A stretch of 49,954 nucleotides of DNA from Clostridia bacterium (GTDB lineage Bacteria > Bacillota > Clostridia > Acetivibrionales > DSM-27016), in the NCBI GenBank assembly GCA_026414765.1, contig JAOAIJ010000033.1, forward strand, positions 1 to 49,954, given 5' to 3'. Under the pieces are notes generated by a model that saw nothing but the letters and a program-made list of their open reading frames with translations, did no database searches and was not told the DNA's origin. Within the stretch, counting starts at the first letter, position 1, and every line of letters starts with the position of its first letter. This document shows, in pieces, positions 41,458-44,600 of the stretch. Made by a program: the position numbers and the translations under genes.

Positions 41458-42456
41458 CTACCGTATGTATATACTATGTCTTACAGGAAATTTTCTATCG
41501 AAAAGAATCGGAACGCTTGTGCCATGTAACCAATCTTCTTTAGAGGCTTGTATATGCAGGTGTGGTGTACTGGAATGACCTGAATTGCCAACTTGTCCGA
41601 TTAACTGCCCCTCCTTGACCTGTTCACCGACTTTGACAGTGATACTGTTTTGTTTTAAGTGCCACATCATAACATAGATATTATTATGCTTAATAACTAT
41701 TCCATTGCCTGTATCACTATAATGTTTTTTTGTAGATGCAGGCATGTCCTTGTACCCGTCATCTACATGGTATACTTCTCCACTACATGGACTATAGACT
41801 TTTTCACCGAATATACTATACTCATCCAAGTTTTCTGGTATAAAATGTTTGTTTTTCAGACGTAATGAATTAATTGAAAACCCAAACTTATTTAGCTTTA
41901 CAATATCATTAGCGTACCTCATGGAGCCGTTATATCTCCAGAAAATATTCGCCGCATCTAGGTAATGATAATTCATGATGGAACTTTTTTCTCCATCACC
42001 TCCTTGGTTTATAAGATATATACCATTTTTAAAAGGAAATACAAGTTTTATAGCTTCTCCTTGATAAAAACAAGCCCTATATGCATTTATGTTTAGATAT
42101 AAACACACGAGAATTGAAACTGTTCCAAGAAAATACCCGATCCATCCGATTAGCTTCTTTTGGTTGAAGAAGGTAAGCTCTTTTGTTTTTATTAATGAGA
42201 TAATCATTGAGATAAGAAAGAGAATAATCAGAAAGTAATTGGTATAATATCCAACAGAAATATCACTTGCTGCTGCATAATGAAGTACGAGAACATAACT
42301 GCCGGTTACTGATACTTTTATAAACCAATCGAGTTTGCACTTGTTTTTAGATATTAATATCCATAATATTAGTATGAAAGGAATAATTAAGTATTGTATA
42401 AAATAGGGTATTATACCGAAAATATCCAATAGATAACTGATTAGTTCTGTAAACAT
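41458..42456 (-). CDS. Membrane-anchored M23 family metallopeptidase
   Basis: A 332-residue protein with about four to five membrane helices in residues 1-125 and a LytM/M23 domain in the C-terminal half. The zinc ligands appear as MNYHY with YANDIV (His and Asp), MMWHL, and GHSSTPHLHIQA. The domain also has GNGIVIKHNN and VGEQVKEGQLIGQVGNSG. M23 enzymes cut peptidoglycan cross-bridges or act on small peptides. GGAGG lies 7 nt before the ATG. It follows the BtrH-like gene by 42 bp and is surely in its operon. Whether the peptidase faces outside cannot be told from the sequence. Confidence 0.8.
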   Translation of the reverse strand: MFTELISYLLDIFGIIPYFIQYLIIPFILILWILISKNKCKLDWFIKVSVTGSYVLVLHYAAASDISVGYYTNYFLIILFLISMIISLIKTKELTFFNQKKLIGWIGYFLGTVSILVCLYLNINAYRACFYQGEAIKLVFPFKNGIYLINQGGDGEKSSIMNYHYLDAANIFWRYNGSMRYANDIVKLNKFGFSINSLRLKNKHFIPENLDEYSIFGEKVYSPCSGEVYHVDDGYKDMPASTKKHYSDTGNGIVIKHNNIYVMMWHLKQNSITVKVGEQVKEGQLIGQVGNSGHSSTPHLHIQASKEDWLHGTSVPILFDRKFPVRHSIYIR

Positions 42457-42498: not shown

Positions 42499-43476
42499 TT
42501 AGAGATCCTTCAATCTTTCCGGGTTTATATGAACATTGTTAAGAGTTTCTTTCAGAAATAATTTTAACTCATTAATTCCTGCTTTTTCGGTTTCTCTAGC
42601 CTGCTTAAAATATTCAACTAATTGTGGAATATACTTTTTGTCTTTATCGAACATCATAGAAAGTGGAAGTTTCAAGATATTTTGATATATTTCCTTCAAT
42701 TTCAGATATTTATTTGCTGCACCACTTATCTCGGGAAGTTCTTTTATGACTTCGGATAAATACTCATAGATTTCGCATTTGGACATACTATATAAAGGCA
42801 GTATATAATATGCACCTGCTTCGTTTAAATCCTGATTTTCTAAAGCACTTATCAGATACTCATATGCCATTCTACCCGAACCATATGAACTGTCAAGCTT
42901 ATATTGGTTTTCCCATTCTTGTACTGCTATAAGCAAAGAGTCTCTGTATATATCTCGGATGTCCTTATCAATTTTTTTGCCAAAGATTTGATAATACCAG
43001 CTTCCCTCAGTAATAATTCCAAAATTCTTATATAGCATAATATTATCTTCTACATCCCCAGGATTCTTAAAGTAGAATACCTGATCTCTATCATCATAAC
43101 CATATATAACTCCGAACTGGGAACTGGACATTCCCCATGCTATCACTCCGAACCCATTGTCAATTGATGTCCTTATTTTTTCTATAGCAGCGTCCTGATA
43201 AAGAACAAATGCCGGGTTATTAAGCTTTCCCTCGTAGTACTCTGAATATATGCCTAAAGTATTTACATGTTTCCAGTTCTCCCAACCCCAATTATATGCA
43301 TCCACTGAACTTGGAAGTAAACGCTTGTGTATAACAAACCTAAATGCAAGCCCAGTCTTTCCGGAAAGCATATATTTAGGACCTTCAAATAGTTTGGAAG
43401 ATGTAAGCACGGCATGAAGACAGTCAATGTAAGACTTAGAGTTTTTAGTAATATTGAACGATTTCAGTATTTTCAG
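42499..43476 (-). CDS. BtrH_N-like (papain-fold) protein with a CTG start
   Basis: The first ATG/GTG/TTG-type start (GTG, 43410) has no ribosome site and cuts off the domain. In the same frame, CTG at 43476 lies 7 nt after a perfect GGAGG (43488-43484). The added 22 residues bring SYIDCLHAVL, the expected Cys-containing first helix of the BtrH_N/C39-like fold. An ATT at 43479 is an alternative start. An in-frame stop lies six codons upstream of the CTG. Later motifs are YMLSGKTGLAFRF and QFGVIYGYDDRDQVFYFKNPG. At the usual His position I see Phe, so catalysis is uncertain. The C-terminal half is helical. 325 residues; function unknown. Confidence 0.7.
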   Translation of the reverse strand: MKILKSFNITKNSKSYIDCLHAVLTSSKLFEGPKYMLSGKTGLAFRFVIHKRLLPSSVDAYNWGWENWKHVNTLGIYSEYYEGKLNNPAFVLYQDAAIEKIRTSIDNGFGVIAWGMSSSQFGVIYGYDDRDQVFYFKNPGDVEDNIMLYKNFGIITEGSWYYQIFGKKIDKDIRDIYRDSLLIAVQEWENQYKLDSSYGSGRMAYEYLISALENQDLNEAGAYYILPLYSMSKCEIYEYLSEVIKELPEISGAANKYLKLKEIYQNILKLPLSMMFDKDKKYIPQLVEYFKQARETEKAGINELKLFLKETLNNVHINPERLKDL

Positions 43477-43550
43477 AATGATACCTCCAATTCATTCAAA
43501 CACCGATCAATGTCATTTTCCTTAATTGGCTGGGTAAATGCGCAAAGCAT
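43473..43550 (-). CDS. 25-codon ORF overlapping the BtrH-like start (possible gene remnant)
   Basis: ATG at 43550 opens 25 codons ending in SF and stop TGA. The stop overlaps the presumed CTG start of the next gene as CTGA, the same geometry as ATGA couplings. No ribosome site precedes the ATG, and a stop lies eight codons further upstream. The peptide (…IDRCLNELEVSF) looks like the tail of a larger protein. It may be a degraded gene end or a leader peptide; low confidence. Confidence 0.3.
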   Translation of the reverse strand: MLCAFTQPIKENDIDRCLNELEVSF

Positions 43551-43590
43551 CTCTAAATGCTTGAATATTTTTTATTATAAAATAATTATA

Positions 43591-43629
43591 AAATCAGTGA
43601 TATGACATAAAGTGTCATACCACTGATTT
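43591..43629 (-). terminator. 17-bp hairpin, terminator of the WYL regulator gene
   Basis: The arms at 43591-43607 and 43613-43629 pair over 17 bp around a 5-nt loop. The only flaw is G-U when read on the minus strand but A-C on the plus strand, so it is built for minus-strand RNA. A U-rich tail follows. Confidence 0.75.
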
Positions 43630-43652
43630 AGCAGGATATCAGCTAAAATTTA

Positions 43653-44540
43653 TTAAAGCTTATCCAACACTCTGTTGCAATGATTTTTCAGCTTCTCGAT
43701 CAACCAATTGGGAGAATGTATTTTTGTCCAATGACTATCCGACAATAACAGGAGAATAAACTCTTGGACATCAGAGAATTCTATATCATAAATATGATCT
43801 GTAATATGTTTAATATCTACATATTTACTAAGGAAACTTTCGGGATTATTGTCAAACTCAATCCGGGCAACATAGCACTCAAGGCAGTATTCTGAGGTGT
43901 ATTTTCTTGTACTGAATTTAGGGTCTTTTTTATAGTGTTCACCGCATTTTGACTTAATAGATTTAATTCTATCCAATCTGTAAACAGCTTCATCCATATT
44001 TTCTTCACAAAACGCAGCCAGGTAATCCATGTTATACTTACGAAAAATTTTATATGGATGTACGGTTAGTTGTAGATTCCCTTTTAGTGGATCCGCATAC
44101 AGAAATCCCAGTTTCATATTTTGTGCTATTGCAGTTAAGATGACATTAATAGTTTCAATCTTATGCTTATCAATATCGAATACCGGTGCATTAACCTCTG
44201 CTTTATGTTGTCCTGTGAGTTTACTAAACAATTTTGATATATGAAGTGTATTGGGAGTATCGTCATAGTTGCTGTATTTATAGGCTAAATAGTATAGGAT
44301 GTTCTTCTCTTCTTCGGTAATATATATATTGGGTAAGACAAATGCTTCATCTTCATATTCAAAACCACGCATTTTGGCAACATATCTTAGAGGTGCATTT
44401 AGTGAATTTTTTAAATATTCAATGTCTCTCGCTGCTTGGCGGACAGAGATTTCAAATTTGTTTGAAATCTGAATGCTATTAGGATATTTTTTCCCTCTAA
44501 CTTCCTGATCAAACCATATGATTCTGTGTATATTACTCAT
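43653..44540 (-). CDS. WYL-domain transcriptional regulator (YafY-type)
   Basis: A 295-residue protein with an N-terminal winged helix (about residues 1-60; ISNKFEISVRQAARDIEYLK is the recognition part) and a central WYL-type ligand-binding domain (LGFLYADPLKGNLQLTVHPYKIFRKYNMDYLAAFCEE). It ends in a WCX-like segment. The start at 44540 follows AGAGGA by 8 nt; the longer frame has no site. WYL proteins bind nucleic-acid or nucleotide ligands and often control DNA-damage or phage-defence genes. It is upstream of, but terminated before, the BtrH-like/M23 pair. Confidence 0.85.
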   Translation of the reverse strand: MSNIHRIIWFDQEVRGKKYPNSIQISNKFEISVRQAARDIEYLKNSLNAPLRYVAKMRGFEYEDEAFVLPNIYITEEEKNILYYLAYKYSNYDDTPNTLHISKLFSKLTGQHKAEVNAPVFDIDKHKIETINVILTAIAQNMKLGFLYADPLKGNLQLTVHPYKIFRKYNMDYLAAFCEENMDEAVYRLDRIKSIKSKCGEHYKKDPKFSTRKYTSEYCLECYVARIEFDNNPESFLSKYVDIKHITDHIYDIEFSDVQEFILLLLSDSHWTKIHSPNWLIEKLKNHCNRVLDKL

Positions 44541-44600
44541 ATTATCGTTCCTCTTGGTAAAAATCCGGGATGACATATATGTAATGAATGCCTTAACATA

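What the first reader, a model, noticed from the sequence alone, without database searches (positions are those of the whole stretch)
43473..43488. CTG (or ATT) start with perfect Shine-Dalgarno and CTGA stop-start overlap
The BtrH_N-like frame continues 22 codons above its first GTG, up to a CTG placed 7 nt after GGAGG, and gains the expected Cys helix. The CTG overlaps the stop of a 25-codon ORF as CTGA. Non-AUG/GUG/UUG starts in bacteria are rare, and standard gene callers would miss the Cys.
Basis: partly seen in the sequence, partly recalled or inferred. Interest (0 to 1): 0.6.

Follow-up and report, generated by a model that had tools for sequence, protein, structure and literature searches.

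The report
Gene starting without ATG, GTG, TTG
A bacterial gene appears to start at one of the rarest start signals (ATT or CTG), because its relatives carry a normal start codon at about that place; this is a rare but known kind of gene start, and automatic annotation would probably cut off a conserved piece of the protein.

Summary
On the minus strand GGAGG (43488-43484) precedes ATT (43479, 4 nt) and CTG (43476, 7 nt); the frame has no ATG/GTG/TTG before GTG 43410. Homologues show that the codons above the GTG are coding: 75 of 75 homologous frames have ATG, GTG or TTG upstream of the conserved helix, and 34 of the 34 closest have one within -6 to +3 codons of the ATT. In a confident model (pLDDT 86) the GTG lies inside helix 1. 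A non-canonical start is therefore likely. ATT versus CTG is open: ATT matches the SD spacing of the closest relative's ATG and the predicted infC starts of this genome; CTG has the commoner spacing.

The Cys is not conserved and probably not the nucleophile. The CTGA overlap and 25-codon ORF are within chance. 'BtrH_N-like' holds by fold (AziU2/U3, CcbD, CtaG), not by Pfam profile.

By-product: a 27-bp palindrome plus a -10 box between the WYL gene and this gene recurs at 34 of 35 related loci and is probably a promoter-operator.

A new instance of a known, rare kind; start-codon loss is not excluded.

The parts
42499..43479 (-). Full-length gene read from ATT (326 aa; 325 aa from CTG): papain-type fold like BtrH-type enzymes AziU2/U3, CcbD and CtaG, with a C-terminal helical part
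   Evidence: (pLDDT 86.1, pTM 0.84); homologues
43484..43488 (-). Shine-Dalgarno GGAGG (GGAGGT with 43483)
   Evidence: GGAGG ends 4-10 nt upstream of 0.5% of positions
43477..43479 (-). Candidate start codon ATT (4-nt spacer)
   Evidence: Same spacer as the ATG of the closest relative L006; infC frames of this genome read GGAGG + 6 nt + ATT and GGAGG + 8 nt + ATT
43474..43476 (-). Candidate start codon CTG (7-nt spacer)
   Evidence: spacer 7 is commoner than 4 in this genome (15 versus 4 of 71)
43408..43410 (-). First canonical start codon in frame (GTG, residue 24), the likely automatic annotation; no SD before it, inside helix 1
43473..43550 (-). 25-codon leader ORF whose stop overlaps CTG as CTGA; probably chance
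   Evidence: 94 of 1000 shuffles as long or longer; no evident counterpart in L006
43597..43623 (-). 27-bp palindrome GTGGTATGACA-N5-TGTCATAYCAC, probable operator in the -35 region
   Evidence: At most 8 of 22 mismatches at 34 of 35 A-type loci, window included; core once in the own genome
43585..43590 (-). -10 box TATAAT, 6 nt after the palindrome
   Evidence: 5 or 6 of 6 matches at exactly this offset in 31 of 34 sites, 0 of 34 at the 13 other offsets tested
43653..44576 (-). WYL-domain transcription regulator gene upstream
   Evidence: Pfam WYL 3.4e-11; similar genes stand next to the homologue in L002, L003, L004 and L006 (by eye)

Best explanation
The gene encodes a full-length protein with a BtrH/CcbD/CtaG-like fold whose translation starts at a non-canonical codon, ATT 43479 (about 0.5, given that one of the two is used) or CTG 43476 (about 0.4), chosen by the strong SD GGAGG. 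By analogy with measured cases such a start lowers output, from about 10-30% of AUG (AUU/AUA in S. aureus) to under 1% (CUG in E. coli). Shown here: the segment above the GTG is conserved and coding, and no canonical start serves it. Inferred: that ribosomes initiate there, and the low output. The mRNA probably starts about 100 nt upstream, at a promoter whose -35 region is a palindrome that recurs beside WYL-type regulator genes (inferred).
For: 75 of 75 non-redundant homologous frames have ATG/GTG/TTG between the upstream stop and the SKSY-equivalent; the window has none. In the 34 frames with tblastn score 190 or more, a canonical codon lies within -6 to +3 codons of the ATT-equivalent in 34 of 34 (26 with an ATG, 6 TTG only, 2 GTG without ATG). 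The closest relative L006 (51%) has GGAGG + 4 nt + ATG. Window versus L006: third codon positions differ in 16 of 23 upstream codons, first and second in 15 of 46 (Fisher p 0.005). Residues 10-23, lost with the GTG start, are on average 51% identical to the window over the first 36 homologues, against 32% for residues 61-326. In the model strand 2-4 and helix 16-27 precede or contain residue 24, the GTG. The window keeps 56 of 84 family-conserved columns, the ATG-started L006 keeps 52. Precedent: AUU and AUA starts with strong SDs in S. aureus (PMC13009471, section 10); predicted ATT starts of both infC genes here.
Against: No expression data, and no second genome of the genus; one contig cannot exclude a base error. 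Residues 2-9 are weakly conserved (20%), so homology does not fix the exact codon. The modal homologue start lies one codon above ATT, which is ATC here, 1 nt from GGAGG, too close to serve. The infC frames also hold canonical codons, so their ATT starts are predictions. RNA around the start folds no better than shuffles (131 of 200 at least as stable), so no special device is visible.
Confidence: 0.7

Rival explanations
1. Start-codon loss: an ancestral canonical start was mutated recently and the gene is silent or nearly so (young pseudogene); the non-canonical codon is damage, not a used start.
For: The closest relative has ATG at the same SD distance, so a single base change from ATG would give ATT. 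CUG gives 0.86% of AUG output in E. coli (figure quoted in PMC11497404).
Against: The 326-codon frame and the SD are intact. No excess of changes at conserved columns relative to the ATG-started L006 (56 versus 52 of 84 kept). The palindrome upstream has 1 mismatch. A very recent loss would not show by these tests.
Confidence: 0.17
2. Termination-reinitiation (compatible with the best explanation): ribosomes that finish the 25-codon leader ORF at TGA restart on the overlapping CTG, so the leader ORF controls the gene.
For: CTGA overlap, with the SD inside the leader ORF.
Against: A leader ORF at least this long that ends there occurs in 94 of 1000 shuffles. No SD stands before its ATG (by inspection). 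No evident counterpart in L006.
Confidence: 0.08
3. Translation starts at GTG 43410 (or at the in-frame ATG 43371 of the PKYM motif), and the frame above is open by chance.
For: GTG is the first canonical start codon and what a gene caller would take.
Against: No SD-like sequence stands before the GTG (by inspection). The 14 residues above it are better conserved than most of the protein. The start would cut helix 1. All 75 homologous frames have a canonical codon further up.
Confidence: 0.05
4. Assembly or sequencing error at the start codon of an ordinary ATG/GTG/TTG gene.
For: Only one genome of the genus is held; reads were not available.
Against: The surroundings are in frame with a coding pattern; single-base consensus errors are rare in draft genomes (general knowledge).
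Confidence: 0.04

Closest known systems
Non-canonical AUU/AUA starts in Staphylococcus aureus (infC, cvfC1, ccpN, citZ; PMC13009471)
   Same: Strong SD followed by a codon other than AUG/GUG/UUG; AUU is one of our two candidates, and the infC frames of this genome show the same design
   Different: There initiation was mapped by ribosome profiling and reporters, and the codon of cvfC1 and ccpN is conserved in relatives. Here the evidence is sequence only and the relatives use canonical codons.
Streptomyces sigR GTC start (PMC5472188)
   Same: Non-canonical start that annotation misplaces to a canonical codon; translation held down by IF3 (passages)
   Different: There the regulatory role was tested genetically; none is shown here. 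Annotation moves the sigR start upstream; here it would move downstream.
AziU2/U3, CcbD and CtaG (BtrH-like papain-fold biosynthetic enzymes; the grouping with BtrH is recalled)
   Same: Whole-length fold match: AziU2/U3 complex chain Z 17.5 (rmsd 6.1, 288 aligned), CcbD Z 16.3 (4.9, 272), CtaG Z 16.2 (4.7, 266); Foldseek E 7.1e-6 for the AziU3/U2 entry
   Different: 9-11% identity; the nucleophile position appears to hold Ser instead of Cys. Neighbours seen here are a WYL regulator and an M23 peptidase (window) or a second paralogue (Paenibacillus).

Membership tests
Genes with a non-canonical (not ATG/GTG/TTG) start codon | No canonical start available for the conserved protein | tested here: met
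   None between TGA 43494 and GTG 43410; homologues conserve residues above the GTG
Genes with a non-canonical (not ATG/GTG/TTG) start codon | Strong SD at a workable distance from a near-cognate codon | tested here: met
   GGAGG 4 nt before ATT and 7 nt before CTG; spacers of 4-10 nt make up 63 of 71 SD-preceded starts in the genome sample
Genes with a non-canonical (not ATG/GTG/TTG) start codon | Initiation shown at that codon (N-terminal peptide, ribosome profiling or reporter) | not testable with these tools
   No expression data
Genes with a non-canonical (not ATG/GTG/TTG) start codon | Non-canonical codon conserved among close relatives (supporting, not required) | tested here: inconclusive
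   No other genome of the genus is held; the one other genome of the family lacks the gene; the nearest homologue (51%) uses ATG
BtrH_N / BtrH-like papain-fold enzymes | Pfam BtrH_N (PF14399) sequence match | tested here: not met
   No match at E up to 1 for the protein and not among the 10 families listed at E up to 10 for the 10 members of alignment A3; HMMER filters drop weak matches
BtrH_N / BtrH-like papain-fold enzymes | Fold shared with AziU2/U3, CcbD and CtaG over the whole chain | tested here: met
   14 rows, Z 15.6-17.5, 264-288 residues aligned
BtrH_N / BtrH-like papain-fold enzymes | Nucleophile Cys at the start of the central helix | tested here: inconclusive
   Judged only from first aligned residues and variant names in entry titles: CtaG C11 falls on residue 16 in 7 of 8 rows and 17 in one; CcbD C19 on 15 to 18 in 4 rows. 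Residue 16 is Ser in 63 and Thr in 7 of 75 homologues; residue 20 is Cys in 2 of 75

The most novel reading that the evidence does not exclude
The natural start is CUG itself, used as a built-in throttle in a gene switched on by a WYL-controlled promoter whose -35 region is replaced by a conserved 27-bp palindrome, and the overlapping 25-codon leader ORF hands ribosomes to the CUG by termination-reinitiation.
Probability: 0.06. Interest if true: 0.65.

Novelty: new member of a known kind. Interest (0 to 1): 0.36.

Why it matters
Few bacterial genes with starts other than ATG/GTG/TTG have been characterised (so PMC5472188), and annotation hides others by moving the start to a canonical codon; here that would delete a strand and two thirds of the first helix. 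A family in which the 34 closest relatives found carry ATG, GTG or TTG while one member has ATT/CTG behind an intact SD is a clean natural case of start-codon weakening. The by-product may be the more useful lead: a sharply conserved palindrome plus -10 box beside WYL-type regulator genes in Clostridia and Paenibacillaceae makes the DNA site of this WYL group directly testable.

Tried and rejected
Cys-helix argument: rejected. Sequence-level link to BtrH_N: no Pfam match; a profile search of PDB sequences gave only chance matches, best E 0.26. Leader ORF: within chance. Programmed frameshift from the leader ORF into the gene: a -1 shift would be needed and TCA-TTC is no slippery site (by inspection, no calculation). 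RNA structure masking the start: not significant.

Terminator between the WYL gene and this gene: the pattern scan calls 43629-43591 terminator-like and it folds strongly (-22.3 kcal/mol, z -7.0). The conservation of its sequence and of the TATAAT offset favours a promoter-operator; both roles remain possible. The sigma-70 scan found 0 promoter-like sites in 43300-43800 (shuffles: mean 2.5); it demands a -35 hexamer, which this site lacks. The limit of 8 mismatches had no control of its own; at 6 mismatches 25 of 53 upstream regions matched against 1 of 53 reversed controls (two of the 25 are one site seen from two frames of L075, and L025 is doubtful). In one search the pattern hit 36 of 295 genomes, but the backward control also hit 24 (my count from its table), so the hits away from this locus are mostly chance.

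Closer homologues: the order (58 genomes), samples of class (391) and phylum (398), viral contigs (none). PADLOC: no match for this protein. ATT versus CTG by strict GGAGG-to-ATG spacing: 3 at 4 nt and 5 at 7 nt of 27, too few to decide.

Dropped rows and limits of counts: frames whose last 150 residues were identical to an earlier one were counted once, and only loci that the tools returned were examined, not every match. extends hits without gaps and does not prove which canonical codon is used. Spacing counts rest on frames picked by length and SD, not on curated starts; 29 of 100 frames gave no SD-preceded start. In one search a frame counts as ATG if any ATG lies in the range, although an SD-based choice would give GTG or TTG in some.

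Full report
What is there. On the minus strand the frame reads TGA ATT GGA GGT ATC ATT CTG AAA ATA CTG AAA TCG TTC AAT ATT ACT AAA AAC TCT AAG TCT TAC ATT GAC TGT CTT CAT GCC GTG. GGAGG lies at 43488-43484, ATT at 43479, CTG at 43476, and the first canonical start is GTG 43410.

Is the upstream part coding? Homologues were sought in the own genome (1 copy), the own order (7 of 58 genomes, own included), a class sample (9 of 391, own included), a phylum sample (22 of 398, own included), named genome contigs (4 Paenibacillus loci) and a sample of the Paenibacillus family (132 of 295). The closest is L006 (51% identity). Its frame reads GCA GGA GGA AAT ATG AGC GGA AAA ATT CTC, with the SD 4 nt before ATG. 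In 75 of 75 non-redundant homologous frames an ATG, GTG or TTG lies between the upstream stop and the SKSY-equivalent. In the 34 frames with a tblastn score of 190 or more, one lies within -6 to +3 codons of the ATT-equivalent: 26 with an ATG, 6 with TTG only, 2 with GTG but no ATG. The window is the exception. Residues 10-23, just above the GTG, average 51% identity to the window over the first 36 homologues, against 58% for 24-60, 32% for 61-326 and 20% for 2-9. Compared with L006, the 23 upstream codons differ at 8, 7 and 16 first, second and third positions, a coding pattern like that of the rest of the gene (115, 83 and 179 of 302 codons; Fisher p 0.005 for third against first plus second).

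Structure. AlphaFold2 on an alignment of nine sequences gave pLDDT 86.1 and pTM 0.84 for the best of five models, the weakest having 64.2. Residues 2-4 form a strand and 16-27 the first long helix; the GTG is residue 24, so a GTG start would remove the strand and 8 of 12 helix residues. The fold matches chains of the AziU2/U3 complex, CcbD and CtaG over the whole length (14 rows, Z 15.6-17.5, 264-288 residues, 9-11% identity; Foldseek E 7.1e-6). [quoted passage not shown] that AziU3, CcbD and CtaG group with BtrH is recalled. No Pfam BtrH_N match was obtained. From the first aligned residues and the variant names in entry titles (CtaG C11A, CcbD C19S), CtaG's Cys falls on residue 16 in 7 of 8 rows and 17 in one, and CcbD's on 15 to 18 in 4 rows. 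So the Cys is no argument for the extension, and the family may be a serine or inactive branch of the fold. Other catalytic positions were not mapped residue by residue.

Which codon? Only ATT and CTG stand at a workable distance from GGAGG; the next near-cognates, ATA 43470 and CTG 43467, are 13 and 16 nt away. In a 173-kb sample of this genome, SD-preceded starts have spacers of 4-10 nt in 63 of 71 cases, with 4 at 4 nt and 15 at 7 nt; that favours CTG. For ATT speak the equal spacer in L006 and the two infC frames of this genome, which read GGAGG + 6 nt + ATT and GGAGG + 8 nt + ATT (these infC starts are predictions by analogy with known infC genes, and canonical codons also lie in both frames). 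In S. aureus AUU and AUA starts were mapped in infC, cvfC1, ccpN and citZ; the three tested gave about 10% of AUG output in poor medium, and ccpN up to 30% in rich medium (PMC13009471, section 10 read, other passages seen). CUG makes up 0.024% of bacterial initiation codons and gives 0.86% of AUG output (figures quoted in PMC11497404, passages seen). Streptomyces sigR (GTC) shows that such starts can be regulatory and are misplaced by annotation (PMC5472188, passages seen). I put ATT at about 0.5 and CTG at about 0.4, given that one of them is used.

Is it used at all? Start-codon loss cannot be excluded. The protein keeps 56 of 84 columns that are at least 95% conserved in 33 Paenibacillaceae rows, while the ATG-started L006 keeps 52, so there is no sign of decay; a very recent loss would not show. 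Only one genome of the genus is held, and the one other genome of the family lacks the gene.

The leader ORF. The 25-codon ORF has no SD before its ATG (by inspection) and no evident counterpart in L006. Of 1000 shuffles of the intergenic stretch, 94 give a leader ORF of at least 25 codons ending near the start. The RNA around the start folds no better than shuffles.

By-product: a promoter-operator. Between the WYL gene and this gene lies a 27-bp palindrome (43623-43597, minus strand), followed after 6 nt by TATAAT. The scan called it terminator-like. But its sequence is kept: with at most 8 mismatches of 22 it is found at 34 of 35 A-type loci (the 34 above plus the window), upstream of the gene or of the operon. 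A box matching TATAAT at 5 or 6 positions stands exactly 6 nt after it in 31 of 34 sites and at the 13 other offsets tested in none. At 6 mismatches, 25 of 53 upstream regions matched against 1 of 53 reversed controls. In the own genome the core occurs once, here. In the Paenibacillus-family sample 36 of 295 genomes have a match with up to 2 mismatches, against 24 for the backward control; by comparing coordinates by eye, 18 of the 36 have one beside the homologue, and most others look like chance. One further genome (L126) has it upstream of a small CxxC..CxxC ORF with a WYL-like gene further on, and no ORF that I recognise as this family in the 9 kb; in L127 the order is palindrome, the same kind of small ORF, WYL-like gene, A, B. 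These WYL-like genes were recognised by eye, not scanned. No -35 hexamer is evident, so the palindrome, centred near -32, may be where a regulator, probably the WYL protein, acts. Binding and direction of control are inference. One paper search on WYL operators (listing only) was made; I did not read those papers and do not claim that the site is unpublished.

Verdict. Observation confirmed; non-canonical start likely; exact codon open; Cys and overlap arguments not supported. A new instance of a known, rare kind.

Noticed in passing
window 43585-43623 (minus strand); L006, L055-L084, L126, L127: 27-bp palindrome GTGGTAYGACA-N5-TGTCRTACCAC followed after 6 nt by a TATAAT-like box, at 34 of 35 loci of this gene family, beside WYL-type regulator genes where I looked; probable operator-promoter of this WYL group.
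   Followed up: partly
L002-L005, L127 and other loci: In Paenibacillaceae the gene often occurs as tandem paralogues A and B behind a WYL-type regulator gene; L126 and L127 also hold a small CxxC..CxxC ORF (MAKTKRGR...) right after the palindrome.
   Followed up: partly
L085 and L086 (own genome, contigs 13 and 29): The genome holds two infC (IF3) genes over the family cut-off, both with a possible ATT start after GGAGG; a second IF3 could matter for start-codon discrimination.
   Followed up: no
window 43434-43432 (residue 16 of the protein): The position that seems to match the nucleophile Cys of CcbD/CtaG is Ser in 63 of 75 homologues: perhaps a serine or inactive branch of the BtrH-like fold.
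   Followed up: partly
window 41458-42456: The downstream gene is an M23 peptidase with hydrophobic N-terminal segments and its own AGGAGG and ATG; L006 has a different gene downstream.
   Followed up: no
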